Assembly: GCA_954871525.1 (NCBI GenBank)
Contig: OX940869.1
Span: forward strand, 24,332,001-24,396,000
From: Parietaria judaica
Lineage: Eukaryota > Streptophyta > Magnoliopsida > Rosales > Urticaceae
Reading direction: 5' to 3'
DNA: 64,000 bases
Shown: positions 353 to 64,000 of the stretch, piece after piece
Layout of the letters: each line of letters starts with the position of its first letter
Numbering within the stretch: the first letter of the stretch is position 1
Made by a program: the position numbers and the translations under genes
Notes under the pieces: generated by a model
Database searches by the model: none
Told to the model about the DNA's origin: nothing
The model's input: only the letters and a program-made list of their open reading frames with translations

Positions 353-356
353 GTAC

Positions 357-4673: not shown

Positions 4674-4675
4674 AT

Positions 4676-25770: not shown

Positions 25771-25774
25771 GTAC

Positions 25775-28369: not shown

Positions 28370-28394
28370 CCCCCCCCCCCCCCCCCCCCCCCCC
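28370..28394 (+). repeat. Run of 25 C in the 3' LTR of element 2
   Basis: The same place in the 5' LTR (20234-20240) has seven C. Slippage, in vivo or during sequencing, is the likely cause. Confidence 0.9.
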
Positions 28395-30176: not shown

Positions 30177-30233
30177 CGGAATCGGTACCAGAACAATATC
30201 GATTCCAGCAAGGATACCCTTGCGGGTTCGACC
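30177..30233. other. 57-bp unassigned segment with a PBS-like stretch
   Basis: Between the presumed end of the element 3 LTR and the next LTR. CGGTACCAGAAC at 30183-30194 matches the PBS TGGTATCAGAGC at 9 of 12 positions. The last five bases, CGACC, would be the left target duplication of the LTR at 30234. Confidence 0.4.
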
Positions 30234-32888: not shown

Positions 32889-34832
32889 CATGGACCCGTA
32901 TCACTTAAGCTCCAACGAACTGCTAGGGTGTTCGTCAAACCTCGGTGTTATTCCACTATAAACCCGAGGCTGCACTCTTTAGTGATACAGTATATATTAT
33001 TCCTTTTATTACAGCAGGGTGTCCATTGATACAATCAAATTCGGGTTATTGATCTTTCACTTGATGATCCACACACGAGCAGGCGGTTTCTACCGTTATG
33101 CCCCTCATTGCATTTTCATCCTTGACTCAGTCAGTAATATTATGAGTGACCCACTTATGGTTTCGATTCATAAGTTGCGCACGGGTACCTCTCACTTCTC
33201 ACCACCGACAATCAAGGGAATCATCATGACTCTGAAGAGAGTTGTGTGATGCCCATGTCTATGACCAAGCTGCCCTTACTTCTGACTATCATGTTCCCAA
33301 AATAATAGTGTTGGGAACAAAGGTAATATATTGTGTTCTTTAACGGTTAAATCAAAGAACAATCAAGCCAGAAGCTCGGACTCAAGACCACTCAGGACTT
33401 AGATCGAATATTCATTTCATCATCTACTAGTGACTCAACTCCAAGTTATCAGTGACGGTCTTATATGATAACTTCCGGAGTTTAAGTCAGGTCCAGTCCA
33501 GCATGAAGACACTTCATACTTAATGCACTTCTAGTGAGTGTGACACACACAAAATCCAGAATAGGATTGTCACTTAGTCACATTAATGACCTTGTACGAT
33601 TAATGGGCTCCCACCCAGTTAATCAGGTCACGGACATTTTAAGTTCATTTATTATGATTATTAATTCTTCTTCACATTGACTCTGTTGTGATAATAATTC
33701 ATAATTGCATCCTTTATGAACTAAGGATCAAACATTCTATTTTACTCTACCAGAAACTATAATAAGATTATCATAATAAGCATCATCTTTATTCAACGTC
33801 TTGTCATAATCTTTTACAAATGGATTAAAATATCTTGTTTAAGGACACGTATGTCCAACACATGGACCCGTATCACTTAAGCTCCAACGAACTGCTAGGG
33901 TGTTCGTCAAACCTCGGTGTTATTCCACTATAAACCCGAGGCTGCACTCTTTAGTGATACAGTATATATTATTCCCTTTATTACAGCAGGGTGTCCATTG
34001 ATACAATCAAATTCGGGTTATTGATCTTTCACTTGATGATCCACACACGAGCAGGCGGTTTCTACCGTTATGCCCCTCATTGCATTTTCATCCTTGACTC
34101 AGTCAGTAATATTATGAGTGACCCACTTATGGTTTCGATTCATAAGTTGCGCACGGGTACCTCTCACTTCTCACCACCGATAATCAAGGTTATCATCATG
34201 ACTCTGAAGAGAGCTGTGTGATGCCCATGTCTATGACCAAGCTACCCTTACTGCTGACTATCATGCTCCCAAAATAATAGTGTTGGGAACAACGGTAATA
34301 TATTGTGTTCTTTAACGGTTAAATCAAAGAACAATCAAGCCAGCAGCTCGGACTCAAGACCACTCAGGACTTAGATCGAATATCTATTTGATCATCTACT
34401 AGTGACTCAACTCCAAGTTATCAGTGACGGTCTTATATGATAACTTCCGGAGTTTAAGTCAGGTCCAGTCCAGCATGAAGACAGTTCATACTTAATGCAC
34501 TTCTTGGGAGTGTGACACACACAAAATCCAGAATAGGATTGTCACTTAGTCACATTAATGACCTTGTACGATTAATGGGCTCCCACCCAGTTAATCAGGT
34601 CACGGACATTTTAAGTTCATTTATTATGATTATTAATTCTTCTTCACATTGACTCTGTTGTGATAATAATTCATAATTGCATCCTTTATGAACTAAGGAT
34701 CAAACATTCTATTTTACTCTACCAGAAACTATAATAAGATTATCATAATAAGCATCATCTTTATTCAACGTCTTGTCATAATCTTTTACAAATGGATAAA
34801 AATATCTTGTTTAAGGACACGTATGTCCAACA
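32889..34832 (-). repeat. Array zone 1: units 1-2, entry units
   Basis: Unit 1 carries the odd-type markers (TTACTTCTGAC, AACAAAGGT) but still AAGAGAGTTGTG; unit 2 carries the even-type markers (GATAATCAAGGTTATC, AACAACGGT). They are the first odd/even pair but less uniform than the pairs that follow. Confidence 0.8.
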
Positions 34833-37800
34833 CATGGACCCGTATCACTTAAGCTCCAACGAACTGCTAGGGTGTTCGTCAAACCTCGGTGTTATTCCAC
34901 TATAAACCCGAGGCTGCACTCTTTAGTGATACAGTATATATTATTCCCTTTATTACAGCAGGGTGTCCATTGATACAATCAAATTCGGGTTATTGATCTT
35001 TCACTTGATGATCCACACACGAGCAGGCGGTTTCTACCGTTATGCCCCTCATTGCATTTTCATCCTTGACTCAGTCAGTAATATTATGAGTGACCCACTT
35101 ATGGTTTCGATTCATAAGTTGCGCACAGGTACCTCTCACTTCTCACCACCGACAATCAAGGGAATCATCATGACTCTGAATAGAGTTGTGTGATGCCCAT
35201 GTCTATGACCAAGCTACCCTTACTTCTGACTATCATGTTCCCAAAATAATAGTGTTGGGAACAAAGGTAATATATTGTGTTCTTTAACGGTTAAATCAAA
35301 GAACAATCAAGCCAGCAGCTCGGACTCAAGACCACTCAGGACTTAGATCGAATATTCATTTCATCATCTCTAGTGACTCAACTCCAAGTTATCAGTGACG
35401 GTCTTATATGATAACTTCCGGAGTTTAAGTCAGGTCCAGTCCAGCATGAAGACACTTCATACTTAATGCACTTCTAGTGAGTGTGACACACACAAAATCC
35501 AGAATAGGATTGTCACTTAGTCACATTAATGACCTTGTACGATTAATGGGCTCCCACCCAGTTAATCAGGTCACGGACATTTTAAGTTCATTTATTATGA
35601 TTATTAATTCTTCTTCACATTGACTCTGTTGTGATAATAATTCATAATTGCATCCTTTATGAACTAAGGATCAAACATTCTATTTTACTCTACCAGAAAC
35701 TATAATAAGATTATCATAATAAGCATCATCTTTATTCAACGTCTTGTCATAATCTTTTACAAATGGATAAAAATATCTTGTTTAAGGACACGTATGTCCA
35801 ACACATGGACCCGTATCACTTAAGCTCCAACGAACTGCTAGGGTGTTCGTCAAACCTCGGTGTTATTCCACTATAAACCCGAGGCTGCACTCTTTAGTGA
35901 TACAGTATATATTATTCCCTTTATTACAGCAGGGTGTCCATTGATACAATCAAATTCGGGTTATTGATCTTTCACTTGATGATCCACACACGAGCAGGCG
36001 GTTTCTACCGTTATGCCCCTCATTGCATTTTCATCCTTGACTCAGTCAGTAATATTATGAGTGACCCACTTATGGTTTCGATTCATAAGTTGCGCACGGG
36101 TACCTCTCACCTCTCACCACCGATAATCAAGGTTATCATCATGACTCTGAAGAGAGCTGTGTGATGCCCATGTCTATGACCAAGCTACCCTTACTGCTGA
36201 CTATCATGCTCCCAAAATAATAGTGTTGGGAACAACGGTAATATATTGTGTTCTTTAACGGTTAAATCAAAGAACAATCAAGCCAGCAGCTCGGACTCAA
36301 GACCACTCAGGACTTAGATCGAATATCTATTTGATCATCTACTAGTGACTCAACTCCAAGTTATCAGTGACGGCCTTATATGATAAATTCCGGAGTTTAA
36401 GTCAGGTCCAGTCCAGCATGAAGACACTTCATACTTAATGCACTTCTAGTGAGTGTGACACACACAAAATCCAGAATAGGATTGTCACTTAGTCACATTA
36501 ATGACCTTGTACGATTAATGGGCTCCCACCCAGTTAATCAGGTCACGGACATTTTAAGTTCATTTATTATGATTATTAATTCTTCTTCACATTGACTCTG
36601 TTGTGATAATAATTCATAATTGCATCCTTTATGAACTAAGGATCAAACATTCTAATTTACTCTACCAGAAACTATAATAAGATTATCATAATAAGCATCA
36701 TCTTTATTCAACGTCTTGTCATAATCTTTTACAAATGGATAAAAATATCTTGTTTAAGGACACGTATGTCCAACACATGGACCCGTATCACTTAAGCTCC
36801 AACGAACTGCTAGGGTGTTCGTCAAACCTCGGTGTTATTCCACTATAAACCCGAGGCTGCACTCTTTAGTGATACAGTATATATTATTCCCTTTATTACA
36901 GCAGGGTGTCCATTGATACAATCAAATTCGGGTTATTGATCTTTCACTTGATGATCCACTCACGAGCAGGCGGTTTCTACCGTTATGCCCCTCATTGCAT
37001 TTTCATCCTTGACTCAGTCAGTAATATTATGAGTGACCCACTTATGGTTTCGATTCATAAGTTGCGCACAGGTACCTCTCACTTCTCACCACCGACAATC
37101 AAGGGAATCATCATGACTCTGAATAGAGTTGTGTGATGCCCATGTCTATGACCAAGCTACCCTTACTTCTGACTATCATGTTCCCAAAATAATAGTGTTG
37201 GGAACAAAGGTAATATATTGTGTTCTTTAACGGTTAAATCAAAGAACAATCAAGCCAGCAGCTCGGACTCAAGACCACTCAGGACTTAGATCGAATATTC
37301 ATTTCATCATCTACTAGTGACTCAACTCCAAGTTATCAGTGACGGTCTTATATGATAACTTCCGGAGTTTAAGTCAGGTCCAGTCCAGCATGAAGACACT
37401 TCATACTTAATGCACTTCTAGTGAGTGTGACACACACAAAATCCAGAATAGGATTGTCACTTAGTCACATTAATGACCTTGTACGATTAATGGGCTCCCA
37501 CCCAGTTAATCAGGTCACGGACATTTTAAGTTCATTTATTATGATTATTAATTCTTCTTCACATTGACTCTGTTGTGATAATAATTCATAATTGCATCCT
37601 TTATGAACTAAGGATCAAACATTCTATTTTACTCTACCAGAAACTATAATAAGATTATCATAATAAGCATCATCTTTATTCAACGTCTTGTCATAATCTT
37701 TTACAAATGGATAAAAATATCTTGTTTAAGGACACGTATGTCCAACACATGGACCCGTATCACTTAAGCTCCAACGAACTGCTAGGGTGTTCGTCAAACC

Positions 37801-40800
37801 TCGGTGTTATTCCACTATAAACCCGAGGCTGCACTCTTTAGTGATACAGTATATATTATTCCCTTTATTACAGCAGGGTGTCCATTGATACAATCAAATT
37901 CGGGTTATTGATCTTTCACTTGATGATCCACACACGAGCAGGCGGTTTCTACCGTTATGCCCCTCATTGCATTTTCATCCTTGACTCAGTCAGTAATATT
38001 ATGAGTGACCCACTTATGGTTTCGATTCATAAGTTGCGCACGGGTACCTCTCACCTCTCACCACCGATAATCAAGGTTATCATCATGACTCTGAAGAGAG
38101 CTGTGTGATGCCCATGTCTATGACCAAGCTACCCTTACTGCTGACTATCATGCTCCCAAAATAATAGTGTTGGGAACAACGGTAATATATTGTGTTCTTT
38201 AACGGTTAAATCAAAGAACAATCAAGCCAGCAGCTCGGACTCAAGACCACTCAGGACTTAGATCGAATATCTATTTGATCATCTACTAGTGACTCAACTC
38301 CAAGTTATCAGTGACGGCCTTATATGATAAATTCCGGAGTTTAAGTCAGGTCCAGTCCAGCATGAAGACACTTCATACTTAATGCACTTCTAGTGAGTGT
38401 GACACACACAAAATCCAGAATAGGATTGTCACTTAGTCACATTAATGACCTTGTACGATTAATGGGCTCCCACCCAGTTAATCAGGTCACGGACATTTTA
38501 AGTTCATTTATTATGATTATTAATTCTTCTTCACATTGACTCTGTTGTGATAATAATTCATAATTGCATCCTTTATGAACTAAGGATCAAACATTCTAAT
38601 TTACTCTACCAGAAACTATAATAAGATTATCATAATAAGCATCATCTTTATTCAACGTCTTGTCATAATCTTTTACAAATGGATAAAAATATCTTGTTTA
38701 AGGACACGTATGTCCAACACATGGACCCGTATCACTTAAGCTCCAACGAACTGCTAGGGTGTTCGTCAAACCTCGGTGTTATTCCACTATAAACCCGAGG
38801 CTGCACTCTTTAGTGATACAGTATATATTATTCCCTTTATTACAGCAGGGTGTCCATTGATACAATCAAATTCGGGTTATTGATCTTTCACTTGATGATC
38901 CACTCACGAGCAGGCGGTTTCTACCGTTATGCCCCTCATTGCATTTTCATCCTTGACTCAGTCAGTAATATTATGAGTGACCCACTTATGGTTTCGATTC
39001 ATAAGTTGCGCACAGGTACCTCTCACTTCTCACCACCGACAATCAAGGGAATCATCATGACTCTGAATAGAGTTGTGTGATGCCCATGTCTATGACCAAG
39101 CTACCCTTACTTCTGACTATCATGTTCCCAAAATAATAGTGTTGGGAACAAAGGTAATATATTGTGTTCTTTAACGGTTAAATCAAAGAACAATCAAGCC
39201 AGCAGCTCGGACTCAAGACCACTCAGGACTTAGATCGAATATTCATTTCATCATCTACTAGTGACTCAACTCCAAGTTATCAGTGACGGTCTTATATGAT
39301 AACTTCCGGAGTTTAAGTCAGGTCCAGTCCAGCATGAAGACACTTCATACTTAATGCACTTCTAGTGAGTGTGACACACACAAAATCCAGAATAGGATTG
39401 TCACTTAGTCACATTAATGACCTTGTACGATTAATGGGCTCCCACCCAGTTAATCAGGTCACGGACATTTTAAGTTCATTTATTATGATTATTAATTCTT
39501 CTTCACATTGACTCTGTTGTGATAATAATTCATAATTGCATCCTTTATGAACTAAGGATCAAACATTCTATTTTACTCTACCAGAAACTATAATAAGATT
39601 ATCATAATAAGCATCATCTTTATTCAACGTCTTGTCATAATCTTTTACAAATGGATAAAAATATCTTGTTTAAGGACACGTATGTCCAACACATGGACCC
39701 GTATCACTTAAGCTCCAACGAACTGCTAGGGTGTTCGTCAAACCTCGGTGTTATTCCACTATAAACCCGAGGCTGCACTCTTTAGTGATACAGTATATAT
39801 TATTCCCTTTATTACAGCAGGGTGTCCATTGATACAATCAAATTCGGGTTATTGATCTTTCACTTGATGATCCACACACGAGCAGGCGGTTTCTACCGTT
39901 ATGCCCCTCATTGCATTTTCATCCTTGACTCAGTCAGTAATATTATGAGTGACCCACTTATGGTTTCGATTCATAAGTTGCGCACGGGTACCTCTCACCT
40001 CTCACCACCGATAATCAAGGTTATCATCATGACTCTGAAGAGAGCTGTGTGATGCCCATGTCTATGACCAAGCTACCCTTACTGCTGACTATCATGCTCC
40101 CAAAATAATAGTGTTGGGAACAACGGTAATATATTGTGTTCTTTAACGGTTAAATCAAAGAACAATCAAGCCAGCAGCTCGGACTCAAGACCACTCAGGA
40201 CTTAGATCGAATATCTATTTGATCATCTACTAGTGACTCAACTCCAAGTTATCAGTGACGGCCTTATATGATAAATTCCGGAGTTTAAGTCAGGTCCAGT
40301 CCAGCATGAAGACACTTCATACTTAATGCACTTCTAGTGAGTGTGACACACACAAAATCCAGAATAGGATTGTCACTTAGTCACATTAATGACCTTGTAC
40401 GATTAATGGGCTCCCACCCAGTTAATCAGGTCACGGACATTTTAAGTTCATTTATTATGATTATTAATTCTTCTTCACATTGACTCTGTTGTGATAATAA
40501 TTCATAATTGCATCCTTTATGAACTAAGGATCAAACATTCTAATTTACTCTACCAGAAACTATAATAAGATTATCATAATAAGCATCATCTTTATTCAAC
40601 GTCTTGTCATAATCTTTTACAAATGGATAAAAATATCTTGTTTAAGGACACGTATGTCCAACACATGGACCCGTATCACTTAAGCTCCAACGAACTGCTA
40701 GGGTGTTCGTCAAACCTCGGTGTTATTCCACTATAAACCCGAGGCTGCACTCTTTAGTGATACAGTATATATTATTCCCTTTATTACAGCAGGGTGTCCA

Positions 40801-43579
40801 TTGATACAATCAAATTCGGGTTATTGATCTTTCACTTGATGATCCACTCACGAGCAGGCGGTTTCTACCGTTATGCCCCTCATTGCATTTTCATCCTTGA
40901 CTCAGTCAGTAATATTATGAGTGACCCACTTATGGTTTCGATTCATAAGTTGCGCACAGGTACCTCTCACTTCTCACCACCGACAATCAAGGGAATCATC
41001 ATGACTCTGAATAGAGTTGTGTGATGCCCATGTCTATGACCAAGCTACCCTTACTTCTGACTATCATGTTCCCAAAATAATAGTGTTGGGAACAAAGGTA
41101 ATATATTGTGTTCTTTAACGGTTAAATCAAAGAAAAATCAAGCCAGCAGCTCGGACTCAAGACCACTCAGGACTTAGATCGAATATTCATTTCATCATCT
41201 ACTAGTGACTCAACTCCAAGTTATCAGTGACGGTCTTATATGATAACTTCCGGAGTTTAAGTCAGGTCCAGTCCAGCATGAAGACACTTCATACTTAATG
41301 CACTTCTAGTGAGTGTGACACACACAAAATCCAGAATAGGATTGTCACTTAGTCACATTAATGACCTTGTACGATTAATGGGCTCCCACCCAGTTAATCA
41401 GGTCACGGACATTTTAAGTTCATTTATTATGATTATTAATTCTTCTTCACATTGACTCTGTTGTGATAATAATTCATAATTGCATCCTTTATGAACTAAG
41501 GATCAAACATTCTATTTTACTCTACCAGAAACTATAATAAGATTATCATAATAAGCATCATCTTTATTCAACGTCTTGTCATAATCTTTTACAAATGGAT
41601 AAAAATATCTTGTTTAAGGACACGTATGTCCAACACATGGACCCGTATCACTTAAGCTCCAACGAACTGCTAGGGTGTTCGTCAAACCTCGGTGTTATTC
41701 CACTATAAACCCGAGGCTGCACTCTTTAGTGATACAGTATATATTATTCCCTTTATTACAGCAGGGTGTCCATTGATACAATCAAATTCGGGTTATTGAT
41801 CTTTCACTTGATGATCCACACACGAGCAGGCGGTTTCTACCGTTATGCCCCTCATTGCATTTTCATCCTTGACTCAGTCAGTAATATTATGAGTGACCCA
41901 CTTATGGTTTCGATTCATAAGTTGCGCACGGGTACCTCTCACCTCTCACCACCGATAATCAAGGTTATCATCATGACTCTGAAGAGAGCTGTGTGATGCC
42001 CATGTCTATGACCAAGCTACCCTTACTGCTGACTATCATGCTCCCAAAATAATAGTGTTGGGAACAACGGTAATATATTGTGTTCTTTAACGGTTAAATC
42101 AAAGAACAATCAAGCCAGCAGCTCGGACTCAAGACCACTCAGGACTTAGATCGAATATCTATTTGATCATCTACTAGTGACTCAACTCCAAGTTATCAGT
42201 GACGGCCTTATATGATAAATTCCGGAGTTTAAGTCAGGTCCAGTCCAGCATGAAGACACTTCATACTTAATGCACTTCTAGTGAGTGTGACACACACAAA
42301 ATCCAGAATAGGATTGTCACTTAGTCACATTAATGACCTTGTACGATTAATGGGCTCCCACCCAGTTAATCAGGTCACGGACATTTTAAGTTCATTTATT
42401 ATGATTATTAATTCTTCTTCACATTGACTCTGTTGTGATAATAATTCATAATTGCATCCTTTATGAACTAAGGATCAAACATTCTATTTTACTCTACCAG
42501 AAACTATAATAAGATTATCATAATAAGCATCATCTTTATTCAACGTCTTGTCATAATCTTTTACAAATGGATAAAAATATCTTGTTTAAGGACACGTATG
42601 TCCAACACATGGACCCGTATCACTTAAGCTCCAACGAACTGCTAGGGTGTTCGTCAAACCTCGGTGTTATTCCACTATAAACCCGAGGCTGCACTCTTTA
42701 GTGATACAGTATATATTATTCCCTTTATTACAGCAGGGTGTCCATTGATACAATCAAATTCGGGTTATTGATCTTTCACTTGATGATCCACTCACGAGCA
42801 GGCGGTTTCTACCGTTATGCCCCTCATTGCATTTTCATCCTTGACTCAGTCAGTAATATTATGAGTGACCCACTTATGGTTTCGATTCATAAGTTGCGCA
42901 CAGGTACCTCTCACTTCTCACCACCGACAATCAAGGGAATCATCATGACTCTGAATAGAGTTGTGTGATGCCCATGTCTATGACCAAGCTACCCTTACTT
43001 CTGACTATCATGTTCCCAAAATAATAGTGTTGGGAACAAAGGTAATATATTGTGTTCTTTAACGGTTAAATCAAAGAACAATCAAGCCAGCAGCTCGGAC
43101 TCAAGACCACTCAGGACTTAGATCGAATATTCATTTCATCATCTACTAGTGACTCAACTCCAAGTTATCAGTGACGGTCTTATATGATAACTTCCGGAGT
43201 TTAAGTCAGGTCCAGTCCAGCATGAAGACACTTCATACTTAATGCACTTCTAGTGAGTGTGACACACACAAAATCCAGAATAGGATTGTCACTTAGTCAC
43301 ATTAATGACCTTGTACGATTAATGGGCTCCCACCCAGTTAATCAGGTCACGGACATTTTAAGTTCATTTATTATGATTATTAATTCTTCTTCACATTGAC
43401 TCTGTTGTGATAATAATTCATAATTGCATCCTTTATGAACTAAGGATCAAACATTCTATTTTACTCTACCAGAAACTATAATAAGATTATCATAATAAGC
43501 ATCATCTTTATTCAACGTCTTGTCATAATCTTTTACAAATGGATAAAAATATCTTGTTTAAGGACACGTATGTCCAACA
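34833..43579 (-). repeat. Array zone 2: units 3-11, dimeric higher-order repeat (~1944 bp)
   Basis: Odd units share CGCACAGGTACC, CTGAATAGAGTTG, AACAAAGGT and ATTCATTTCATC; even units share GATAATCAAGGTTATC, GAGAGCTGTG, CATGCTCCC and AACAACGGT. Units 5, 7, 9 and 11 also have CCACTCACGAG; units 4, 6, 8 and 10 have GGCCTTATATGATAAATTCC. Successive dimers look virtually identical by eye, with single differences such as AAGAAAAATC at about 41132 and ATTCTATTTT in unit 10 where units 4, 6 and 8 have ATTCTAATTT. Confidence 0.88.
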
Positions 43580-44421
43580 CATGGACCCGTATCACTTAAG
43601 CTCCAACGAACTACTAGGGTGTTCGTCAAACCTCGGGGTTATTCCACTATAAACCCGAGGCTGCACTCTTTAGTGTTCATCCTTGACTCAGTCAGTAATA
43701 TTATGAGTGACCCACTTATGGTTTCGATTCATAAGTTGCGCACGGGTACCTCTCACGTCTCACCACCGACAATCAAGGGAATCATCATGACTCTGAAGAG
43801 AGCTGTGTGATGCCCATGTCTATGACCAAGCTACCCTTACTGCTGACTATCATGCTCCCAAAATAATAGTGTTGGGAACAACGGTAATATATTGTGTTCT
43901 TTAACGGTTAAATCAAAGAACAATCAAGCCAGAACCTCGGACTCAAGACCACTCAGGACTTAGATCGAATATCCATTTGATCATCTATTAGTGACTCAAC
44001 TCCAAGTTATCAGTGACGGTCTTATATGATAACTTCCGGAGTTTAAGTCAGGCCCAGTCCAGCATGAAGACACTTCATACTTAATGCACTTCTAGTGAGT
44101 GTGACACACACAAAATCCAGAATAGGATTGTCACTTAGTCACATTAATGACCTTGTACGATTAATGGGCTCCCACCCAGTTAATAAGGTCACGAACATTT
44201 TAAGTTCATTTATTATGATTATTAATTCTTCTTCACATTGACTCTGTTGTGATAATAATTCATAATTGCATCCTTTATGAACTAAGGATCAAACATTCTA
44301 TTTTACTCTACCAGAAACTATAATAAGATTATCATAATAAGCATCATCTTTATTCAACGTCTTGTCATAATCTTTTACAAATGGATAAAAATATCTTGTT
44401 TAAGGACACATATGTCCAACA
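43580..44421 (-). repeat. Unit 12: 842 bp, internal 130-bp deletion
   Basis: Sequence jumps at about 43675 from CTCTTTAGTG to TTCATCCTTGACTC, losing the part between. It is the only large indel in the array and sits exactly between the dimer zone and the more mixed zone to its right. Confidence 0.93.
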
Positions 44422-50400: not shown

Positions 50401-51223
50401 AATTCGGGTTATTGATCTTTCACTTGATGATCCACACACGAGCAGGCGGTTTCTACCGTTATGCCCCTCATTGCATTTTCATCCTTGACTCAGTCAGTAA
50501 TATTATGAGTGACCCACTTATGGTTTCGATTCATAAGTTGCGCACGGGTACCTCTCACGTCTCACCACCGACAATCAAGGTTATCATCATGACTCTGAAG
50601 AGAGCTGTGTGATGCCCATGTCTATGACCAAGCTACCCTTACTGTTTACTATCATGCTCCCAAAATAATAGTGTTGGGAACAACGGTAATATATTGTGTT
50701 CTTTAACGGTTAAATCAAAGAACAATCAAGCCAGCAGCTCGGACTCAAGACCACTCAGGACTTAGATCGAATATCCATTTGATCATCTACTAGTGACTCA
50801 ACTCCAAGTTATCAGTGACGGTCTTATATGATAACTTCCGGAGTTTAAGTCAGGCCCAGTCCAGCATGAAGACACTTCATACTTAATGCACTTCTAGTGA
50901 GTGTGACACACACAAAATCCAGAATAGGATTGTCACTTAGTCACATTAATGACCTTGTACGATTAATGGGCTCCCACCCAGTTAATCAGGTCACGGACAT
51001 TTTAAGTTCATTTATTATGATTATTAATTCTTCTTCACATTGACTCTGTTGTGATAATAATTCATAATTGCATCCTTTATGAACTAAGGATCAAACATTC
51101 TATTTTACTCTACCAGAAACTATAATAAGATTATCATAATAAGCATCATCTTTATTCAACGTCTTGTCATAATCTTTTACATATGGATAAAAATATCTTG
51201 TTTAAGGACACATATGTCCAACA
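44422..51223 (-). repeat. Array zone 3: units 13-19, mixed monomers
   Basis: Mostly one type (CACGTCTCACCACC, AACAACGGT), with private changes: a stop from TTGAATTTTC in unit 13, CATGATGACAC and TTGAACGATT in units 16-17, and a 4-bp loss near 48102 in unit 16. From about here on the junction reads ACACATATGTCC in most units, where zone 2 has ACACGTATGTCC. Confidence 0.75.
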
Positions 51224-54200
51224 CATGGACCCGTATCACTTAAGCTCCAACGAACTGCTAGGGTGTTCGTCAAACCTCGATGTTATTCCACTATAAACCC
51301 GAGGCTGCACTCTTTAGTGATACAGTATATATTATTCCCTTTATTACAGCAGGGTGTCCATTGATACAATCAAATTCGGGTTATTGATCTTTCACTTGAT
51401 GATCCACACACGAGCAGGCGGTTTCTACCGTTATGCCCCTCATTGCATTTTCATCCTTGACTCAGTCAGTAATATTATGAGTGACCCACTTATGGTTTCG
51501 ATTCATAAGTTGCGCACGGGTACCTCTCACGTCTCACCACCGACAATCAAGGGAATCATCATGACTCTGAAGAGAGCTGTGTGATGCCCATGTCTATGAC
51601 CAAGCTACCCTTACTGCTGACTATCATGCTCCCAAAATAATAGTGTTGGGAACAACGGTAATATATTGTGTTCTTTAACGGTTAAATCAAAGAACAATCA
51701 AGCCAGCAGCTCGGACTCAAGACCACTCAGGACTTAGATCGAATATCCATTTGATCATCTACTAGTGACTCAACTCCAAGTTATCAGTGACGGTCTTATA
51801 TGATAACTTCCGGAGTTTAAGTCAGGTCCAGTCCAGCATGATGACACTTCATACTTAATGCACTTCTAGTGAGTGTGACACACACAAAATCCAGAATAGG
51901 ATTGTCACTTAGTCACATTAATGACCTTGAACGATTAATGGGCTCCCACCCAGTTAATCAGGTCACGGACATTTTAAGTTCATTTATTATGATTATTAAT
52001 TCTTCTTCACATTGACTCTGTTGTGATAATAATTCATAATTGCATCCTTTATGAACTAAGGATCAAACATTCTATTTTACTCTACCAGAAACTATAATAA
52101 GATTATCATAATAAGCATCATCTGTATTCAACGTCTTGTCATAATCTTTTACAAATGGATAAAAATATCTTGTTTAAGGACACATATGTCCAACACATGG
52201 ACCCATATCACTTAAGCTCCAACGAACTACTAGGGTGTTTGTCAAACCTAGGTGTTATTCCACTATAAACCCGAGGCTGCACTCTTTAGTGATACAGTAT
52301 ATATTATTCCCTTTATTACAGCAGGGTGTCCATTGATACAATCAAATTCGGGTTATTGATCTTTCACTTGATGATCCACACACGAGCAGGCGGTTTCTAC
52401 CGTTATGCCCCTCATTGCATTTTCATCCTTGACTCAGTCAGTAATATTATGAGTGACCCACTTATGGTTTCGATTCATAAGTTGCGCACGGGTACATCTC
52501 ACGTCTCACCACCGACAATCAAGGGAATCATCATGACTCTGAAGAGAGCTGTGTGATGCCCATGTCTATGACCAAGCTACCCTTACTGCTGACTATCATG
52601 CTCCCAAAATAATAGTGTTGGGAACAACGGTAATATATTGTGTTCTTTAACGGTTAAATCAAAGAACAATCAAGCCAGCAGCTCAGACTCAAGACCACTC
52701 AGGACTTAGATCGAATATCCATTGATCATCTACTAGTGATTGAACTCGAAGTTATCAGTGACGGTCTTATATGATAACTTCCGGAGTTTAAGTCAGGTCC
52801 AGTCCAGCATGAAGACAGTTCATACTTAATGCACTTCTAGGGAGTGTGACACACACAAAATCCAGAATAGGATTGTCGCTTAGTCACATTAATGACCTTG
52901 TACGATTAATGGGCTCCCACCCAATTAATCAGGTCACGGACATTTTAAGTTCATTTATTATAATTATTAATTCTTCTTCACATTGACTCTGTTGTGATAA
53001 TAATTCATAATTGCATCCTTTATGAACTAAGGATCAAACATTCTATTTTACACTACCAGAAACTATAATAAGATTATCATAATAAGCATCATCTTTATTC
53101 AACGTCTTGTCATAATCTCTTACAAATGGATAAAAATACCTTGTTTAAGGACACATATGTCCAACACATGGACCCGTATCACTTAAGCTCCAACGAACTG
53201 CTAGGGTGTTCGTCAAACCTCGATGTTATTCCACTATAAACCCGAGGCTGCACTCTTTAGTGATACAGTATATATTATTCCCTTTATTACAGCAGGGTGT
53301 CAATTGATACAATCAAATTCGGGTTATTGATCTTTCACTTGATGATCCACACACGAGCAGGTGGTTTCTACCGTTATGCCCCTCGTTGCATTTTCATCCT
53401 TGACTCAGTCAGTAATATTATGAGTGACCCACTTATGGTTTCGATTCATAAGTTGCGCACGGGTACCTCTCACGTCTCACCACCGACAATCAAGGTTATC
53501 ATCATGACTCTGAAGAGAGCTGTATGATGCCCATGTCTATGACCAAGCTACCCTTACTGCTGAATATCATGCTCCCAAAATAATAGTGTTGGGAACAACG
53601 GTAATATATTGTGTTCTTTAACGGTTAAATCAAAGAACAATCAAGCCAGCAGCTCGGACTCAAGACCACTCAGGACTTAGATCGAATATCCATTTGATCA
53701 TCTACTAGTGACTCAACTCCAAGTTATCAGTGACGGTCTTATATGATAACTTCCGGAGTTTAAGTCAGGTCCAGTCCAGCATGATGACACTTCATACTTA
53801 ATGCACTTCTAGTGAGTGTGACACACACAAAATCCAAAATAGGATTGTCACTTAGTAACATTAATGACCTTGAACGATTAATGGGCTCCCACCCAGTTAA
53901 TCAGGTCACGGACATTTTAAGTTCATTTATTATGATTATTAATTCTTCTTCACATTGACTCTGTTGTGATAATAATTCATAATTGCATCCTTTATGAACT
54001 AAGGATCAAACATTCTATTTTACTCTACCAGAAACTATAATAAGATTATCATAATAAGCATCATCTGTATTCAACGTCTTGTCATAATATTTTACAAATG
54101 GATAAAAATATCTTGTTTAAGGACACATATGTCCAACACATGGACCCGTATCACTTAAGCTCCAACGAACTACTAGGGTGTTCGTCAAACCTAGGTGTTA

Positions 54201-55109
54201 TTCCACTATAAACCCGAGGCTGCACTCTTTAGTGATACAGTATATATTATTCCCTTTATTACAGCAGGGTGTCCATTGATACAATCAAATTCGGGTTATT
54301 GATCTTTCACTTGATGATCCACACACGAGCAGGCGGTTTCTACCGTTATGCCCCTCATTGCATTTTCATCCTTGACTCAGTCAGTAATATTATGAGTGAC
54401 CCACTTATGGTTTCGATTCATAAGTTGCGCACGGGTACATCTCACGTCTCACCACCGACAATCAAGGGAATCATCATGACTCTGAAGAGAGCTGTGTGAT
54501 GCCCATGTCTATGACCAAGCTACCCTTACTGCTGACTATCATGCTCCCAAAATAATAGTGTTGGGAACAACGGTAATATATTGTGTTCTTTAACGGTTAA
54601 ATCAAAGAACAATCAAGCCAGCAGCTCGGACTCAAGACCACTCAGGACTTAGATCGAATATCCATTGATCATCTACTAGTGACTCAACTCCAAGTTATCA
54701 GTGACGGTCTTATATGATAACTTCCGGAGTTTAAGTCAGGTCCAGTCCAGCATGAAGACAGTTCATACTTAATGCACTTCTAGGGAGTGTGATACACACA
54801 AAATCCAGAATAGGATTGTCGCTTAGTCACATTAATGACCTTGTACGATTAATGGGGTCCCACCCAATTAATCAGGTCACAGACATTTTAAGTTCATTTA
54901 TTATAATTATTAATTCTTCTTCACATTGACTCTGTTGTGATAATAATTCATAATTGCATCCTTTATGAACTAAGGATCAAACATTCTATTTTACTCTACC
55001 AGAAACTATAATAAGATTATCATAATAAGCATCATCTTTATTCAACGTCTTGTCATAATCTTTTACAAATGGATAAAAATATCTTGTTTAAGGACACATA
55101 TGTCCAACA
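51224..55109 (-). repeat. Array zone 4: units 20-23, second dimeric block (~1943 bp)
   Basis: Units 20 and 22 share CATGATGACAC and TTGAACGATT. Units 21 and 23 share CGGGTACATCTCACG, ATATCCATTGATC (one T lost), GACAGTTCATAC, CTAGGGAGTG and CACCCAATTAATC. CATCTGTATTC recurs at about 52120 and 54061. The lost T explains the 971-bp lengths of units 21 and 23. Confidence 0.82.
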
Positions 55110-58025
55110 CATGGACCCTTATCACTTAAGCTCCAACGAACTACTAGAGTGTTCGTCAAACCTAGGTGTTATTCCACTAGAAACCCGAGGCTGCACTCTT
55201 TAGTGATACAGTATATATTATTCCCTTTATTACAGCAGGGTGTCCATTGATACAATCAAATTCGGGTTATTGATCTTTCACTTGATGATCCACACACGAG
55301 CAGGCGGTTTCTACCGTTATGCCCCTCATTGCATTTTCATCCTTGACTCAGTCAGTAATATTATGAGTGACCCACTTATGGTTTCGATTCATAAGTTGCG
55401 CACGGGTACCTCTCACTTCTCACCACCGACATTCAAGGGAATCATCATGACTCTGAAGAGAGCTGTGTGATGCCCATGTCTATGACCAAGCTACCCTTAC
55501 TGCTGACTATCATGCTCCCAAAATAATAGTGTTGGGAACAACGGTAATATATTGTGTTCTTTAACGGTTAAATCAAAGAACAATCAAGCCAGCAGCTCGG
55601 ACTCAAGACCACTCAGGACTTAGATCGAATATCCATTTGATCATCTACTAGTGACTCAACTCCAAGTTATCAGTGACGGTCTTATATGATAACTTCCGGA
55701 GTTTAAGGCAGGTCCAGTCCAGCATGAAGACACTTCATACTTAATGCACTTCTAGTGAGTGTGACACACACAAAATCCAGAATAGGATTGTCACTTAGTC
55801 ACATTACTGACCTTGTACGATTAATGGGCTCCCACCCAGTTAATCAGGTCATGGACATTTTAAGTTCATTTATTATGATTATTAATTCTTCTTCACATTG
55901 ACTCTGTTGTGATAATAATTCATAATTTCATCCTTTATGAACTAAGGATCAAACATTCTATTTTACTCTACCAGAAACTATAATAAGATTATCCTAATAA
56001 GCATTATTATTATTCAACATCTTGTCATAATCTTTTACAAATGGATAAAAATATCTTGTTTAAGGACACATATGTCCAACACATGGACCCGTATCACTTA
56101 AGCTCCAACGAACTGCTAGGGTGTTCGTCAAACCTCGGTGTTATTCCACTATAAACCCGAGGCTGCAATCTTTAGTGATACAATATATATTATTCCCTTT
56201 ATTACAGCAGGGTGTCCATTGGTACAATCAAATTCGGGTTATTGATCTTTCACTTGATGATCCACACACGAGCAGGCGGTTTCTACCGTTATGCCCCTCA
56301 TTGCATTTTCATCCTTGACTCAGTCAGTAATATTATGAGTGACCCACTTATGGTTTCGATTCATAAGTTGCGCACGGGTACCTCTCACTTCTCACCACCG
56401 AAATTCAAGGGAATCATTATGACTCTGAAGAGAGCTGTGTGATGCCCATGTCTATGACCAAGCTACCCTTACTGCTGACTATCATGCTCCCAAAATAATA
56501 GTGTTGGGAACAACGGTAATATTTTGTGTTCTTTAACGGTTAAATCAAAGAACAATCAAGCCAGCAGCTCGGACTCAAGACCACTCAGGACTTAGATCGA
56601 ATATCCATTTGATCATCTACTAGTGACTCAACACCAAGTTATCAGTGACGGTCTTATATGATAACTTCCGGAGTTTAAGGCAGGTCCAGTCCAGCATGAA
56701 GACACTTCATACTTAATGCACTTCTAGTGAGTGTGACACATACAAAATTCAGAATAGGATTGTCACTTAGTCACATTAATGACCTTGTACGATTAATGGG
56801 CTCCCACCCAGTTAATCAGGTCACGGACATTTTAAGTTCATTTATTATGATTATTAATTCTTCTTCACATTGACTCTGTTGTGATAATAATTCATAATTG
56901 CATCCTTTATGAACTAAGGATCAAACATTCTATTTTACTCTACCAGAAACTATAATAAGATTATCATAATAAGCATCATCTTTATTCAACGTCTTGTCAT
57001 AATCTTTTACAAATGGATAAAAATATCTTGTTTAAGGACACATATGTCCAACACATGGACCCGTATCACTTAAGCTCCAACGAACAGCTAGGGTGTTCGT
57101 CAAACCTCGATGTTATTCCACTATAAACCCGAGGCTGCACTCTTTAGTGATACAGTATATATTATTCCCTTTATTACAGCAGGGTGTCCATTGATACAAT
57201 CAAATTCGGGTTATTGATCTTTCACTTGATGATCCACACACGAGCAGGCGGTTTCTACCGTTATGCCCCTCATTGCATTTTCATCCTTGACTCGGTCAGT
57301 AATATTATGAGTGACCCACTTATGGTTTCGATTCATAAGTTGCGCACGGGTACCTCTCACTTCTCACCACCGACATTCAAGGGAATCATCATGACTCTGA
57401 AGAGAGCTGTGTGATGCCCATGTCTATGACCAAGCTACCCTTACTGCTGACTATCATGCTCCCAAAATAATAGTGTTGGGAACAACGGTAATATATTGTG
57501 TTCTTTAACGGTTAAATCAAAGAACAATCAAGCCAGCAGCTCGGACTCAAGACCACTCAGGACTTAGATCGAATATCCATTTGATCATCTACTAGTGACT
57601 CAACACCAAGTTATCAGTGACGGTCTTATATGATAACTTCCGGAGTTTAAGGCAGGTCCAGTCCAGCATGAAGACACTTCATACTTAATGCACTTCTAGT
57701 GAGTGTGACACACACAAAATCCAGAATAGGATTGTCACTTAGTCACATTAATGACCTTGTACGATTAATGGGCTCCCACCCAGTTAATCAGGTCATGGAC
57801 ATTTTAAGTTCATTTATTATGATTATTAATTCTTCTTCACATTGACTCTGTTGTGATAATAATTCATAATTTCATCCTTTATGAACTAAGGATCAAACAC
57901 TCTATTTTACTCTACCAGAAACTATAATAAGATTATCCTAATAAGCATCATCTTTATTCAACATCTTGTCATAATCTTTTACAAATGGATAAAAATATCT
58001 TGTTTAAGGACACATATGTCCAACA
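55110..58025 (-). repeat. Array zone 5: units 24-26, transition
   Basis: These share CGACATTCAAGG or CGAAATTCAAGG and GTTTAAGGCAGG. Unit 25 has CCATTGGTACAATC and TTATCCTAATAAGC-like changes that return in units 27 and 30. Confidence 0.7.
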
Positions 58026-61000
58026 CATGGACCCGTATCACTTAAGCTCCAACGAACTGCTAGGGTGTTCGTCAAACCTCGGTGTTATTCCACTATAAAC
58101 CCGAGGCTGCAATCTTTAGTGATACAATATATATTATTCCCTTTATTACAGCAGGGTGTCCATTGGTACAATCAAATTCGGGTTATTGATCTTTCACTTG
58201 ATGATCCACACACGAGCAGGCGGTTTCTACCGTTATGCCCCTCATTGCATTTTCATCCTTGACTCAGTCAGTAATATTATGAGTGACCCACTTATGGTTT
58301 CGATTCATAAGTTGCGCACGGGTACCTCTCACTTCTCACCACCGAAATTCAAGGGAATCATTATGACTCTGAAGAGAGCTGTGTGATGCCCATGTCTATG
58401 ACCAAGCTACCCTTACTGCTGACTATCATGCTCCCAAAATAATAGTGTTGGGAACAACGGTAATATATTGTGTTCTTTAACGGTTAAATCAAAGAACAAT
58501 CAAGCCAGCAGCTCGGACTCAAGACCACTAAGGACTTAGATCGAATATCCATTTGATCATCTACTAGTGACTCAACACCAAGTTATCAGTGACGGTCTTA
58601 TATGATAACTTCCGGAGTTTAAGGCAGGTCCAGTCCAGCATGAAGACACTTCATACTTAATGCACTTCTAGTGAGTGTGACACATACAAAATTCAGAATA
58701 GGATTGTCACTTAGTCACATTAATGACCTTGTACAATTAATGGGCTCCCACCCAGTTAATCAGGTCACGGACATTTTAAGTTCATTTATTATGATTATTA
58801 ATTCTTCTTCACATTGACTCTGTTGTGATAATAATTCATAATTGCATCCTTTATGAACTAAGGATCAAACATTCTATTTTACTCTACCAGAAACTATAAT
58901 AAGATTATCATAATAAGCATCATCTTTATTCAACGTCTTGTCATAATCTTTTACAAATGGATAAAAATATCTTGTTTAAGGACACATATGTCCAACACAT
59001 GGACCCGTATCACTTAAGCTCCAACGAACTGCTAGGGTGTTCGTCAAACCTCGGTGTTATTCCACTATAAACCCGAGGCTGCACTCTTTAGTGATACAGT
59101 ATATATTATTCCCTTTATTACAGCAGGGTGTCCATAGATACAATCAAATTCGGGTTATTGATCTTTCACTTGATGATCCACACACGAGCAGGCGGTTTCT
59201 ACCGTTATGCCCCTCATTGCATTTTCATCCTTGACTCAGTCAGTAATATTATGAGTGACCCACTTATGGTTTCGATTCATAAGTTGCGCACGGGTACCTC
59301 CCACGTCTCACCACCGACAATGAAGGGAATCATCATGACTCTGAAGAAAGCTGTGTGATGCCCATGTCTATGACCAAGCTACCCTTACTACTGACTATCA
59401 TGCTCCCAAAATAATAGTGTTGGGAACAACGGTAATATATTGTGTTCTTTAACGGTTAAATCAAAGAACAATCAAGCCAGCAGCTCAGACTCAAGACCAC
59501 TCAGGACTTAGATCGAATATCCATTTGATCATCTACTAGTGACTCAACTCCAAGTTATCAGTGACGGTCTTATATGATAACTTCCGAAGTTTAAGTTAGG
59601 CCCAGTCCAGCATGAAGACACTTCATACTTAATGCACTTCTAGTGAGTGTGACACACACAAAATCCAGAATAGGATTGTCACTTAGTCACATTAATGACC
59701 TTGTACGATTAATGGGCTCCCACCACGTTAATCAGGTCACGGACATTTTAAGTTCATATATTATGATTATTAATTCTTCTTCACATTGACTCTGTTGTGA
59801 TAATAATTCATAAATGCATCCTTTATGAACTAAGGATCAAACATTCTATTTTACTCTACCAGAAACTATAATAAGATTATCATAATAAGCATCGTCTTTA
59901 TTCAACGTCTTGTCATAATCTTTTACAAATGGATAAAAATATCTTGTTTAAGGACACATATGTCCAACACATGGACCCGTATCACTTAAGCTCCAACGAA
60001 CTGCTAGGGTGTTCGTCAAACCTCGGTGTTATTCCACTATAAACCCGAGGCTGCACTCTTTAGTGATACAGTATATATTATTCCCTTTATTACAGCAGGG
60101 TGTCCATTGATACAATCAAATTCGGGTTATTGATCTTTCACTTGATGATCCACACACGAGCAGGCGGTTTCTACCGTTATGCCCCTCATTGCATTTTCAT
60201 CCTTGACTCAGTCAGTAATATTATGAGTGACCCACTTATGGTTTCGATTCATAAGTTGCGCACGGGTACCTCTCACGTCTCACCACCGACAATCAAGGGA
60301 ATCATCATGACTCTGAAGAGAGCTTTGTGATGCCCATGTCTATGACCAAGCTACCCTTACTGCTGACTATCATGTTCGCAAAATAATAGTGTTCGGAACA
60401 ACGGTAATATATTGTGTTCTTTAACGGTTAAATCAAAGAACAATCAAGCCAGCAGCTCGGACTCAAGACCACTCAGGACTTAGATCGAATATCCATTTGA
60501 TCATCTACTAGTGACTCAACTCCAAGTTATCAGTGACGGTCTTATATGATAACTTCCGGAGTTTAAGTCAGGTCCAGTCCAGCATGAAGACACTTCATAC
60601 TTAATGCACTTCTAGTGAGTGTGACACACACAAAATCCAGAATAGGATTGTCACTTAGTCACATTAATGACCTTGTACGATTAATGGGCTCCCACCCAGT
60701 TAATCAGGTCATGGACATTTTAAGTTCATTTATTATGATTATTAATTCTTCTTCACATTGACTCTGTTGTGATAATAATTCATAATTTCATCCTTTATGA
60801 ACTAAGGATCAAACATTCTATTTTACTCTACCAGAAACTATAATAAGATTATCATAATAAGCATCATCTTTATTCAACATCTTGTCATAATATTTTACAA
60901 ATGGATAAAAATATCTTGTTTAAGGACACATATGTCCAACACATGGACCCGTATCACTTAAGCTCCAACGAACTGCTAGGGTGTTCGTCAAACCTCGGTG

Positions 61001-63857
61001 TTATTCCACTATAAACCCGAGGCTGCAATCTTTAGTGATACAATATATATTATTCCCTTTATTACAGCAGGGTGTCCATTGGTACAATCAAATTCGGGTT
61101 ATTGATCTTTCACTTGATGATCCACACACGAGCAGGCGGTTTCTACCGTTATGCCCCTCATTGCATTTTCATCCTTGACTCAGTCAGTAATATTATGAGT
61201 GACCCACTTATGGTTTCGATTCATAAGTTGCGCACGGGTACCTCTCACTTCTCACCACCGACATTCAAGGGAATCATCATGACTCTGAAGAGAGCTGTGT
61301 GATGCCCATGTCTATGACCAAGCTACCCTTACTGCTGACTATCATGCTCCCAAAATAATAGTGTTGGGAACAACGGTAATATATTGTGTTCTTTAACGGT
61401 TAAATCAAAGAACAATCAAGCCAGCAGCTCGGACTCAAGACCACTCAGGACTTAGATCGAATATCCATTTGATCATCTACTAGTGACTCAACACCAAGTT
61501 ATCAGTGACGGTCTTATATGATAACTTCCGGAGTTTAAGGCAGGTCCAGTCCAGCATGAAGACACTTCATACTTAATGCACTTCTAGTGAGTGTAACACA
61601 TACAAAATTCAGAATAGGATTGTCACTTAGTCACATTAATGACCTTGTACGATTAATGGGCTCCCACCCAGTTAATCAGGTCACGGACATTTTAAGTTCA
61701 TTTATTATGAATATTAATTCTTCTTCACATTGACTCTGTTGTGATAATAATTCATAATTGCATCCTTTATGAACTAAGGATCAAACATTCTATTTTACTC
61801 TACCAGAAACTATAATAAGATTATCATAATAAGCATCATCTTTATTCAACGTCTTGTCATAATCTTTTACAAATGGATACAAATATCTTGTTTAAGGACA
61901 CATATGTCCAACACATGGACCCGTATCACTTAAGCTCCAACGAACTGCTAGGGTGTTCGTCAAACCTCGGTGTTATTCCACTATAAACCCGAGGCTGCAC
62001 TCTTTAGTGATACAGTATATATTATTCCCTTTATTACAGCAGGGTGTCCATAGATACAATCAAATTCGGGTTATTGATCTTTCACTTGATGATCCACACA
62101 CGAGCAGGCGGTTTCTACCGTTATGCCCCTCATTGCATTTTCATCCTTGACTCAGTCAGTAATATTATGAGTGACCCACTTATGGTTTCGATTCATAAGT
62201 TGCGCACGGGTACCTCTCACGTCTCACCACCGACAATGAAGGGAATCATCATGACTCTGAAGAAAGCTGTGTAATGCCCATGTCTATGACCAAGCTACCC
62301 TTACTACTGACTATCATGCTCCCAAAATAATAGTGTTGGGAACAACGGTAATATATTGTGTTCTTTAACGGTTAAATCAAAGAACAATCAAGCCAGCAGC
62401 TCAGACTCAAGACCACTCAGGACTTAGATCGAATATCCATTTGATCATCTACTAGTGACTCAACTCCAAGTTATCAGTGACGGTCTTATATGATAACTTC
62501 CGAAGTTTAAGTTAGGCCCAGTCCAGCATGAAGACACTTCATACTTAATGCACTTCTAGTGAGTGTGACACACACAAAATCCAGAATAGGATTGTCACTT
62601 AGTCACATTAATGACCTTGTACGATTAATGGGCTCCCACCCAGTTAATCAGGTCACGGACATTTTAAGTTCATATATTATGATTATTAATTCTTCTTCAC
62701 ATTGACTCTGTTGTGATAATAATTCATAAATGCATCCTTTATGAACTAAGGATCAAACATTCTATTTTACTCTACCAGAAACTATAATAAGATTATCATA
62801 ATAAGCATCGTCTTTATTCAACGTCTTGTCATAATCTTTTACAAATGGATAAAAATATCTTGTTTAAGGACACATATGTCCAACACATGGACCCGTATCA
62901 CTTAAGCTCCAAAGAACTGCTAGGGTGTTCGTCAAACCTCGGTGTTATTCCACTATAAACCCGAGGCTGCACTCTTTAGTGATACAGTATATATTATTCC
63001 CTTTATTACAGCAGGGTGTCCATTGACACAATCAAATTCGGGTTATTGATCTTTCACTTGATGATCCACACAGGAGCAGGCGGTTTCTACCGTTATGCCC
63101 CTCATTGCATTTTCATCCTTGACTCAGTCAGTAATATTATGAGTGACCCACTTATGGTTTCGATTCATAAGTTGCGCACGGGTACCTCTCACGTCTCACC
63201 ACCGACAATCAAGGGAATCATCATGACTCTGAAGAGAGCTTTGTGATGCCCATGTCTATGACCAAGCCACCCTTACTGCTGACTATCATGTTCCCAAATT
63301 AATAGTGTTCGGAACAACGGTAATATATTGTGTTCTTTAACGGTTAAATCAAAGAACAATCAAGCCAGCAGCTCGGACTCAAGACCACTCAGGACTTAGA
63401 TCGAATATCCATTTGATCATCTACTAGTGACTCAACTCCAAGTTATCAGTGACGGTCTTATATGATAACTTCCGGAGTTTAAGTCAGGTCCAGTCCAGCA
63501 TGAAGACACTTCATACTTAATGCACTTCTAGTGAGTGTGACACACACAAAATCCAGAATAGGATTGTCACTTAGTCACATTAATGACCTTGTACGATTAA
63601 TGGGCTCCCACCCAGTTAATCAGGTCACGGACATTTTAAGTTCATTTATTATGATTATTAATTCTTCTTTACATTGACTCTGTTGTGATAATAATTCATA
63701 ATTGCATCCTTTATGAACTAAGGATCAAACATTCTATTTTACTCTACCAGAAACTATAATAAGATTATCATAATAAGCATCATCTTTATTCAACGTCTTG
63801 TCATAATCTTTTACAAATGGATAAAAATATCTTGTTTAAGGACACATATGTCCAACA
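58026..63857 (-). repeat. Array zone 6: units 27-32, trimeric higher-order repeat (2916 bp)
   Basis: Unit pairs 27/30, 28/31 and 29/32 are each exactly 2916 bp apart. Units 27 and 30 share CCATTGGTACAATC and CTGCAATCTTTAG. Units 28 and 31 share CCATAGATACAATC, CGACAATGAAGGG, GAAGAAAGCTGTG, TTACTACTGAC and CTTCCGAAGTTTAAGTTAGG. Units 29 and 32 share GAGAGCTTTGTG and GTGTTCGGAACAACGG. Confidence 0.88.
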
Positions 63858-64000
63858 CATGGACCCGTATCACTTAAGCTCCAACGAACTGCTAGGGTGT
63901 TCGTCAAACCTCGGTGTTATTCCACTATAAACCCGAGGCTTCACTCTTTAGTGATACAGTATATATTATTCCCTTTATTACAGCAGGGTGTCCATTGATA

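What the first reader, a model, noticed from the sequence alone, without database searches (positions are those of the whole stretch)
32889..64000. Satellite made from the outer 971 bp of a copia LTR
Seen: 32 complete head-to-tail units of ~972 bp, each equal to U3 positions 1-971 of the LTR immediately to the left (30234-32888), joined terminus-to-position-971. The parent LTR is still attached, so the birthplace of the array can be read: LTR start | U3 position 971 is the founding junction. Known: large satellites derived from LTR retrotransposons exist in plants, some at centromeres. Inference: this may be an undescribed satellite family with its founder preserved; routes include unequal exchange or rolling-circle copying of an extrachromosomal LTR fragment.
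Basis: partly seen in the sequence, partly recalled or inferred. Interest (0 to 1): 0.87.

Follow-up and report, generated by a model that had tools for sequence, protein, structure and literature searches.

The report
Solo LTR grown into tandem array
One ordinary retrotransposon remnant (a solo LTR) in this plant-type genome has had its outer 971 bases copied in place into a 34-copy tandem block, an unusually readable example of how a satellite repeat may begin.

Summary
The window holds 32 head-to-tail units; 31 are 970-972 bp and one is 842 bp. Each equals the outer 971 bp of U3 of the LTR at 30234-32888, and all 33 junctions join the LTR terminus to U3 position 971. DNA fetched to the right shows the array ends after a 33rd unit, which is split by another solo LTR (TSD GAAAC). 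Next comes CGACC, as on the left of the LTR. Uninterrupted copies of the joined flanks exist elsewhere in the genome (10 places). The whole 37.5 kb is therefore one solo-LTR insertion whose U3 end expanded in place. The junction was found nowhere else in the 538.7-Mb assembly (33 of 33 matches here), so this is a single-locus embryonic array, not a satellite family. The 11 units beside the LTR form 1,944-bp dimers; odd units are chimeras of LTR-type and array-type sequence. With block duplications further out, this points to unequal crossing-over. The founding duplication is less certain; I prefer self-insertion into U3 followed by LTR-LTR recombination. Any centromere role is untested.

The parts
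30229..30233 (.). left target-site duplication CGACC; the right copy is just beyond the window (67726-67730 on the extended sequence)
30234..32888 (-). founder solo LTR (2,655 bp), TG...CA ends, copia-type family; no PBS on its U5 side
31918..32888 (-). u00: founder's U3 positions 1-971, the first copy of the unit, still joined to the LTR body
32889..43579 (-). units u01-u11: dimeric higher-order repeat (1,944 bp); same-parity units mean 99.7%, odd-even 98.3%; odd units carry LTR-type variants in the outer two thirds
43580..44421 (-). u12: unit with a 130-bp internal deletion (842 bp)
44422..63857 (-). units u13-u32: older part of the array; u12-u32 mean pairwise identity 97.9%, with 2- and 3-unit block duplications
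63858..64000 (-). start of u33, the last unit; it continues to 64726, is split by solo LTR E (64727-67617, TSD GAAAC), and ends at 67725 next to CGACC

Best explanation
A copia-type element inserted with a 5-bp TSD (CGACC) and was reduced to a solo LTR. The outer 971 bp of its U3 was then duplicated head to tail, with the join at the LTR terminus. Unequal (out-of-register) exchange between sister or homologous copies expanded this to 34 copies in place, still bounded by the original TSD. The latest growth was at the LTR-proximal edge: an exchange between the LTR's own end and an array unit made a chimeric unit that pairs with an array-type unit in a dimer, and this dimer was then amplified. 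SHOWN: one TSD around the whole, an empty site, a single locus, near-identical junctions, a dimer block, chimeric units, and un-homogenised edge copies. INFERRED: the first duplication. My preferred route (about 0.55 on its own) is a second element of the same family inserting into U3 at position 971. Recombination between the outer LTR part and the inserted LTR would then leave a full LTR followed directly by the 971-bp remainder. The unit length would be set by where the second element landed.
For: CGACC lies directly outside both ends of LTR plus array. The flanks joined with one CGACC give a 30-base pattern that occurs at 10 other places with 2-3 mismatches (control 0; 6 of 10 keep CGACC), so the site exists uninterrupted. 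Five-bp TSDs are common in this family: of 17 full LTRs examined, 8 are solo with a perfect 5-bp TSD, 3 have one mismatch, 6 adjoin element interiors. The junction was found 33 times genome-wide, all here. Unequal exchange makes a new unit from the inner part of an array unit plus the outer part of u00. Odd units match u00 at 6 of 10 outer sites and at 0 of 10 inner sites (712-856) where u00 differs from the array (Fisher p 0.011). Edge effect: 12 of 13 u00-private variants lie in its inner half (p 0.0017); at position 62 the last unit keeps T, as in 20 of 20 copies, while the other 33 array copies have A. Distal units resemble neighbours at lags 2-3 (p 0.0002), with block copies u20-21/u22-23 and u27-29/u30-32. 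For self-insertion: the break is within 1 bp of the LTR terminus (p 0.0006-0.003 if uniform). u00 carries C-A-A-T at 12/566/618/712, as do dispersed copies L030 and L040 (2 of 22), while u33 carries the commoner T-G-G-C, hinting at two source LTRs. E shows that a related LTR has landed in this U3.
Against: For the founding step: no second copy of the expected target duplication (CATGG) is seen beside the LTR, and no near-identical donor was found. u00's inner haplotype has no other match within 2 mismatches. Two dispersed copies sharing 62A are not close relatives. Some variants shared by u00 and odd units are not exclusive: 566A and 618A occur in dispersed copies, and 12C is also in the even units. 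Conversion of u00 by another LTR could give the L030-like haplotype. Trees disagree: FastTree groups u00 with all units, but IQ-TREE rooted on B does not make the array monophyletic. Gene conversion could produce some of the chimeras.
Confidence: 0.87

Rival explanations
1. The founding duplication was a simple illegitimate or end-joining event within one solo LTR (break at the LTR edge joined to U3 position 971 on the sister), with no second element; the same unequal exchange followed. (A rival to the founding step only.)
For: Only 0-1 bp of homology at the join, as in end joining. No near-identical donor copy found. u00 and units group together in FastTree.
Against: The join falling within 1 bp of the LTR terminus is a coincidence of about 0.0006-0.003 under uniform breakpoints. 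u00 and the last unit carry two different four-site haplotypes that both occur among dispersed copies.
Confidence: 0.28
2. An extrachromosomal circle of the 971-bp U3 piece (for example from cDNA self-integration, which also joins the LTR terminus to an internal site) was copied by rolling circle and recombined into the solo LTR.
For: Plant satellites do occur as circles (recalled; the survey PMC2543021 was seen only in the listing and abstract start).
Against: Junction at one locus only. Ordered variation with dimers and lag-2/3 block copies, and chimeras with the LTR's own end, point to growth in place. Both TSDs are intact.
Confidence: 0.1
3. Assembly artefact: the copy number is inflated by mis-assembly of one or two units.
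For: Several units are identical (u04=u06=u08; u05=u07=u11); no reads could be checked.
Against: 25 of the 33 units outside the LTR carry at least one variant of their own. The array ends cleanly at the matching TSD, is split by an insertion with its own TSD, and lies inside a 33.9-Mb contig.
Confidence: 0.04
4. The tandem existed before insertion: a reverse-transcription product with a duplicated U3 end inserted once.
For: Rice tandem elements flanked by one TSD were linked to a single insertion (PMC11899658, passages and Discussion; that Discussion leaves both routes open).
Against: No other copy was found to carry the junction, and the distal units differ among themselves as much as the dispersed copies do (97.9% vs 97.8%).
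Confidence: 0.08

Closest known systems
CRM1TR and CRM4TR of maize (PMC3648361; passages read)
   Same: Tandem repeats derived wholly from one retrotransposon, from the LTR region, confined to one or two loci; a partly duplicated LTR structure is proposed as founder; nested insertion is suggested.
   Different: Gypsy CRM elements; unit spans LTR plus UTR; longer, interrupted arrays; growth ascribed mainly to gene conversion. Here the unit is pure U3, the founder LTR is attached, and a TSD brackets the whole.
Sobo satellite of wild potato (PMC9659126 table; PMC3648361 passage) and LTR-derived potato centromeric repeats St3-58, St3-238 and others; originals not read
   Same: Satellite units with homology to retrotransposon LTRs.
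   Different: Sobo: 4.7-kb unit, about 360 kb. Here 34 copies of 972 bp at one place with the birthplace intact.
VaccSat1 of Vaccinium (PMC7290377, passages)
   Same: Satellite resembling part of an LTR that survives as solo LTRs.
   Different: Gypsy (Ogre-like) LTR; the link to the LTR was drawn across species, not from a founder still attached to the array.
Tandem LTR-retrotransposon arrays sharing internal LTRs in rice and other plants (PMC11899658; outline, passages and Discussion)
   Same: Tandem structure bracketed by a single 5-bp TSD.
   Different: Repeat unit there is a whole element (LTR plus internal region), with few copies; here part of one LTR, 34 copies.
Ogre 3'UTR-derived satellites of Lathyrus (PMC7004042, passages)
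   Same: Satellites emerging from retrotransposon sequence.
   Different: They start from short tandem repeats already inside the element; Tandem Repeats Finder lists none inside 31918-32888.

Membership tests
LTR-retrotransposon-derived tandem repeat | Unit wholly homologous to part of an LTR | tested here: met
LTR-retrotransposon-derived tandem repeat | Long head-to-tail array with a defined unit | tested here: met
   32 complete units in window, 33 in all plus the LTR's own copy
Satellite DNA family | High copy number, usually several loci or a large fraction of the genome | tested here: not met
   Junction pattern found only at this array, 33 of 33 matches in 538.7 Mb with up to 3 mismatches
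Satellite DNA family | Concerted evolution with higher-order repeats | tested here: met
   dimer block u01-u11
Centromeric satellite | CENH3 association or cytogenetic position at a centromere | not testable with these tools
   no ChIP or FISH data; position is 24.4 Mb on a 33.9-Mb contig
Ty1/copia-type solo LTR | TG...CA termini, 5-bp TSD, no internal region | tested here: met
   empty site
Ty1/copia-type solo LTR | Family membership through coding domains | tested here: met
   Indirect: the related element at 1-7285 has Pfam copia gag PF14223 and RVT_2 PF07727 and its LTR is about 84% identical; the founder itself has no coding region
CRM1TR-like repeats | Derived from centromeric gypsy (CRM) elements | tested here: not met
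   copia-type LTR
Rolling-circle product | Extrachromosomal circles of the unit | not tested
   no eccDNA data

The most novel reading that the evidence does not exclude
Self-insertion of an element into its own family's LTR, followed by ordinary solo-LTR recombination, turns a dead LTR into a satellite seed whose unit length is fixed by the landing site. The array then grows from the LTR-proximal edge, where the LTR end keeps feeding fresh sequence into new units. Any genome rich in nested same-family insertions would then hold many such seeds.
Probability: 0.37. Interest if true: 0.72.

Novelty: new variant of a known kind. Interest (0 to 1): 0.56.

Why it matters
How a satellite repeat starts is usually lost once it has spread. 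Here the parent LTR, the founding junction, both edges of the original insertion and the order of later growth are all in one 37.5-kb stretch. It makes a concrete model testable: duplication at an LTR terminus, then unequal crossing-over with a growth point beside the LTR. The test is whether alleles differ by 972 or 1,944 bp at the LTR-proximal edge. LTR-derived satellites themselves are known, so the kind is not new.

Tried and rejected
Considered and rejected: (1) D as a chimera of two LTR subfamilies with a break near position 840, suggested by a drop in identity to dispersed copies. A site table showed the array and u00 share the haplotype of 5 of 20 copies there, so that break is not needed. 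(2) A private donor: 62A also occurs at two dispersed LTRs, but they are only 92% and 96% like u00. (3) u00's inner haplotype elsewhere: no other match within 2 mismatches; 11 others at 3. (4) Similarity between the LTR end and the position-971 site as a recombination seed: seen by eye, judged weak, not tested. (5) Rfam: 0 matches. (6) Host species: nearest named gag proteins are Zingiber officinale at about 66%, too distant to name the host; a matK search did not complete.

Led nowhere: a genome search with the LTR body did not complete. A paper search for '972 bp' with satellite, monomer, retrotransposon and LTR gave none. Tek 2005 is not held. The list of LTR places is capped (39 scored of 4,200) and does not show the array itself, so it is not a ranking of the nearest copies.

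For these I raised the main confidence from 0.82 to 0.87, self-insertion from 0.5 to 0.55 and the novel case from 0.35 to 0.37, and lowered the one-LTR rival from 0.33 to 0.28.
Full report
What is there. The window's right half is a head-to-tail array. Unit 1 (32889-33860) was searched against the window: 32 complete units run to 63857. Of these, 31 are 970-972 bp and one is 842 bp. A partial unit fills the last 143 bases. Each matches 31918-32888, the U3 end of the LTR 30234-32888, and all 33 junctions in the window join the LTR's last base to the same internal site. The LTR is in minus orientation. A related element at 1-7285, also minus, carries copia gag (PF14223) and RVT_2 (PF07727) matches, and its 5' LTR is followed by a primer-binding site (the motif is recognised from memory). 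The founder LTR has no such site beside it, so it is a solo LTR.

Beyond the window. The window lies at C19:24332001-24396000 of a 538.7-Mb assembly in 87 contigs. I fetched 99 kb of new sequence to the right. Only one more unit follows directly. It is split at 64727 by another LTR, E (64727-67617, 2,891 bp, TSD GAAAC on both sides, 79-83% to the founder LTR over its matching pieces). With E and one TSD copy set aside, the unit is 972 bp. It ends at 67725 in GTCCAACA, directly followed by CGACC. The five bases left of the founder LTR are also CGACC. One target-site duplication therefore encloses LTR plus array: 37,492 bp with E, 34,596 without E and its extra TSD copy. The two flanks joined with a single CGACC make a 30-base pattern. 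It matches 10 other places in the genome with 2-3 mismatches, against 0 for the reversed control, and 6 of the 10 keep CGACC. The target was thus a repeated sequence that still exists uninterrupted. This is the central result: the array is the inside of a single insertion.

How rare it is. A 33-base pattern over the junction, with up to 3 mismatches, occurs 33 times in the assembly, all in this array, with 0 control matches. The LTR family itself is dispersed: a unit query listed 39 scored places at 97-98% out of 4,200 first-look candidates. Of 17 full-length LTRs examined (16 of those 20, plus L048), 8 are solo LTRs with a perfect 5-bp TSD, 3 have one mismatch, and 6 are joined to element interiors. 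Solo-LTR formation is thus routine here.

How it grew. (1) Units 1-11 alternate: odd-odd 99.7%, even-even 99.7%, odd-even 98.3%, a 1,944-bp dimer. (2) Odd units carry u00's variants at 12, 448, 539, 566, 579 and 618. From 712 to 856, where u00 differs from the units at 10 sites, they carry none of u00's states (u01 has a third state at 856). An unequal crossover between the LTR end and an array unit predicts such a unit: inner part from the array, outer part from the LTR. Limits: 12C is in even units too; 566A and 618A also occur in dispersed copies; 448A is in 1 of 22 copies, and 539T and 579A in 0 of 22. Four more u00 variants (313, 466, 489, 550) are absent from odd units; the last three are private to u00 and 313A is shared with three distal units. 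Counting these against gives 6 of 10 outer versus 0 of 10 inner sites (Fisher p 0.011; site 664, mixed among units, was left out). (3) In the distal part, identity is raised at lags 2 and 3 (permutation p 0.0002) but not at lag 1 (p 0.25). Contiguous blocks u20-21/u22-23 and u27-29/u30-32 are copies. (4) Edges: crossing-over cannot spread the inner part of the first copy or the outer part of the last. Of 13 variants private to the first copy, 12 lie in its inner half (p 0.0017). Position 62 is A in the other 33 array copies but T in the last unit, in the 20 copies and in LTR B. The last unit's private variants show no such skew (6 outer, 4 inner), which neither helps nor hurts.

Age. Distal units differ by 2.15% on average, close to the 2.2% among the 20 copies. 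With substitution rates recalled from memory (7e-9 to 1.3e-8), this is roughly 0.8-1.6 million years. The dimer block is nearly invariant and so much younger.

The founding step. The join lies at the LTR terminus or one base beyond, because both the TSD and the position-971 site begin with C. If a break were placed uniformly within 0.5-2.7 kb either side, landing this close has probability 0.0006-0.003. Retroelement ends are defined to the base, so a joining event that used an LTR end is more likely. The simplest sequence uses only common events. A same-family element inserts into U3 at position 971. The LTR part outside it then recombines with the inserted LTR, leaving one full LTR followed directly by the 971-bp remainder and the old TSD. 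One observation hints at two source LTRs: at positions 12, 566, 618 and 712, u00 reads C-A-A-T, as do L030 and L040 (2 of 22 copies), while the last unit reads the commoner T-G-G-C. L030 is also the fetched copy most like the founder in U3 (97.2%) and in the LTR body (93.6%). Conversion of u00, or parallel transitions, could imitate this. E shows that related LTRs do land in this U3. A neighbouring element (18015-28969) has a separate partial U3 duplication in its 3' LTR made from two differing U3 sequences. No near-identical donor was found, and the extra target duplication the model predicts would have been lost, so this step stays inferred.

Evidence against and limits. IQ-TREE (rooted on LTR B) does not make the array monophyletic. 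19 of 22 dispersed copies form a clade without any unit (ultrafast bootstrap 96), but that clade sits among the units. FastTree had grouped u00 with all units. Exchange within the array makes single trees unreliable. No reads, methylation or chromosome data were available. The host was not identified.

Comparison. LTR-derived satellites are known (table in PMC9659126; mechanisms reviewed in PMC12628747, passages). The nearest described case is maize CRM1TR/CRM4TR (PMC3648361, passages), where an LTR-UTR~LTR founder and nested insertions were proposed but gene conversion was favoured for growth. VaccSat1 resembles part of an LTR known from solo LTRs (PMC7290377, passages). Whole-element tandems inside one TSD are described from rice (PMC11899658; outline, passages and Discussion), and Cassandra arrays from other plants (PMC7215508, passages). 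In the papers and passages I saw, none shows a TSD-bounded array of part of one solo LTR; this rests on eight answered searches of an open-access library that lacks most subscription papers. I place it as a new variant of a known kind.

Noticed in passing
25763-26560: 3' LTR of the copia element 18015-28969 (TSD TCATC) has a partial tandem U3: the first 359 bp resemble its own 5' LTR (96.9%), then a polypurine tract and a second U3 start more like the founder LTR (94.7%) than its own 5' LTR (87%).
   Followed up: partly
18015-20815 vs 30234-32888: The outer ~1 kb of U3 is about 90% alike between two LTR subfamilies whose remaining LTR is only about 67% alike, the reverse of the usual expectation that U3 varies most.
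   Followed up: no
18015-20815 and 26168-28969: The two LTRs of one element are 97.3% alike beyond U3 position 971 but 92.4% within it, suggesting ectopic exchange of U3.
   Followed up: partly
L045:3001-5755: An LTR with a polypurine tract before it and a primer-binding site after it, as expected for an LTR shared by two tandem elements.
   Followed up: no
11964-14601: Solo LTR of the same family with TSD ATTCT.
   Followed up: yes
43580-44421: The one short unit lacks 130 bp; it is the first unit after the dimer block.
   Followed up: no
24208-24556: Two-copy 174-bp tandem repeat inside the copia element 18015-28969.
   Followed up: no
7517-7885: Integrase core domain (PF00665) fragment beside the first copia LTR.
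   Followed up: no
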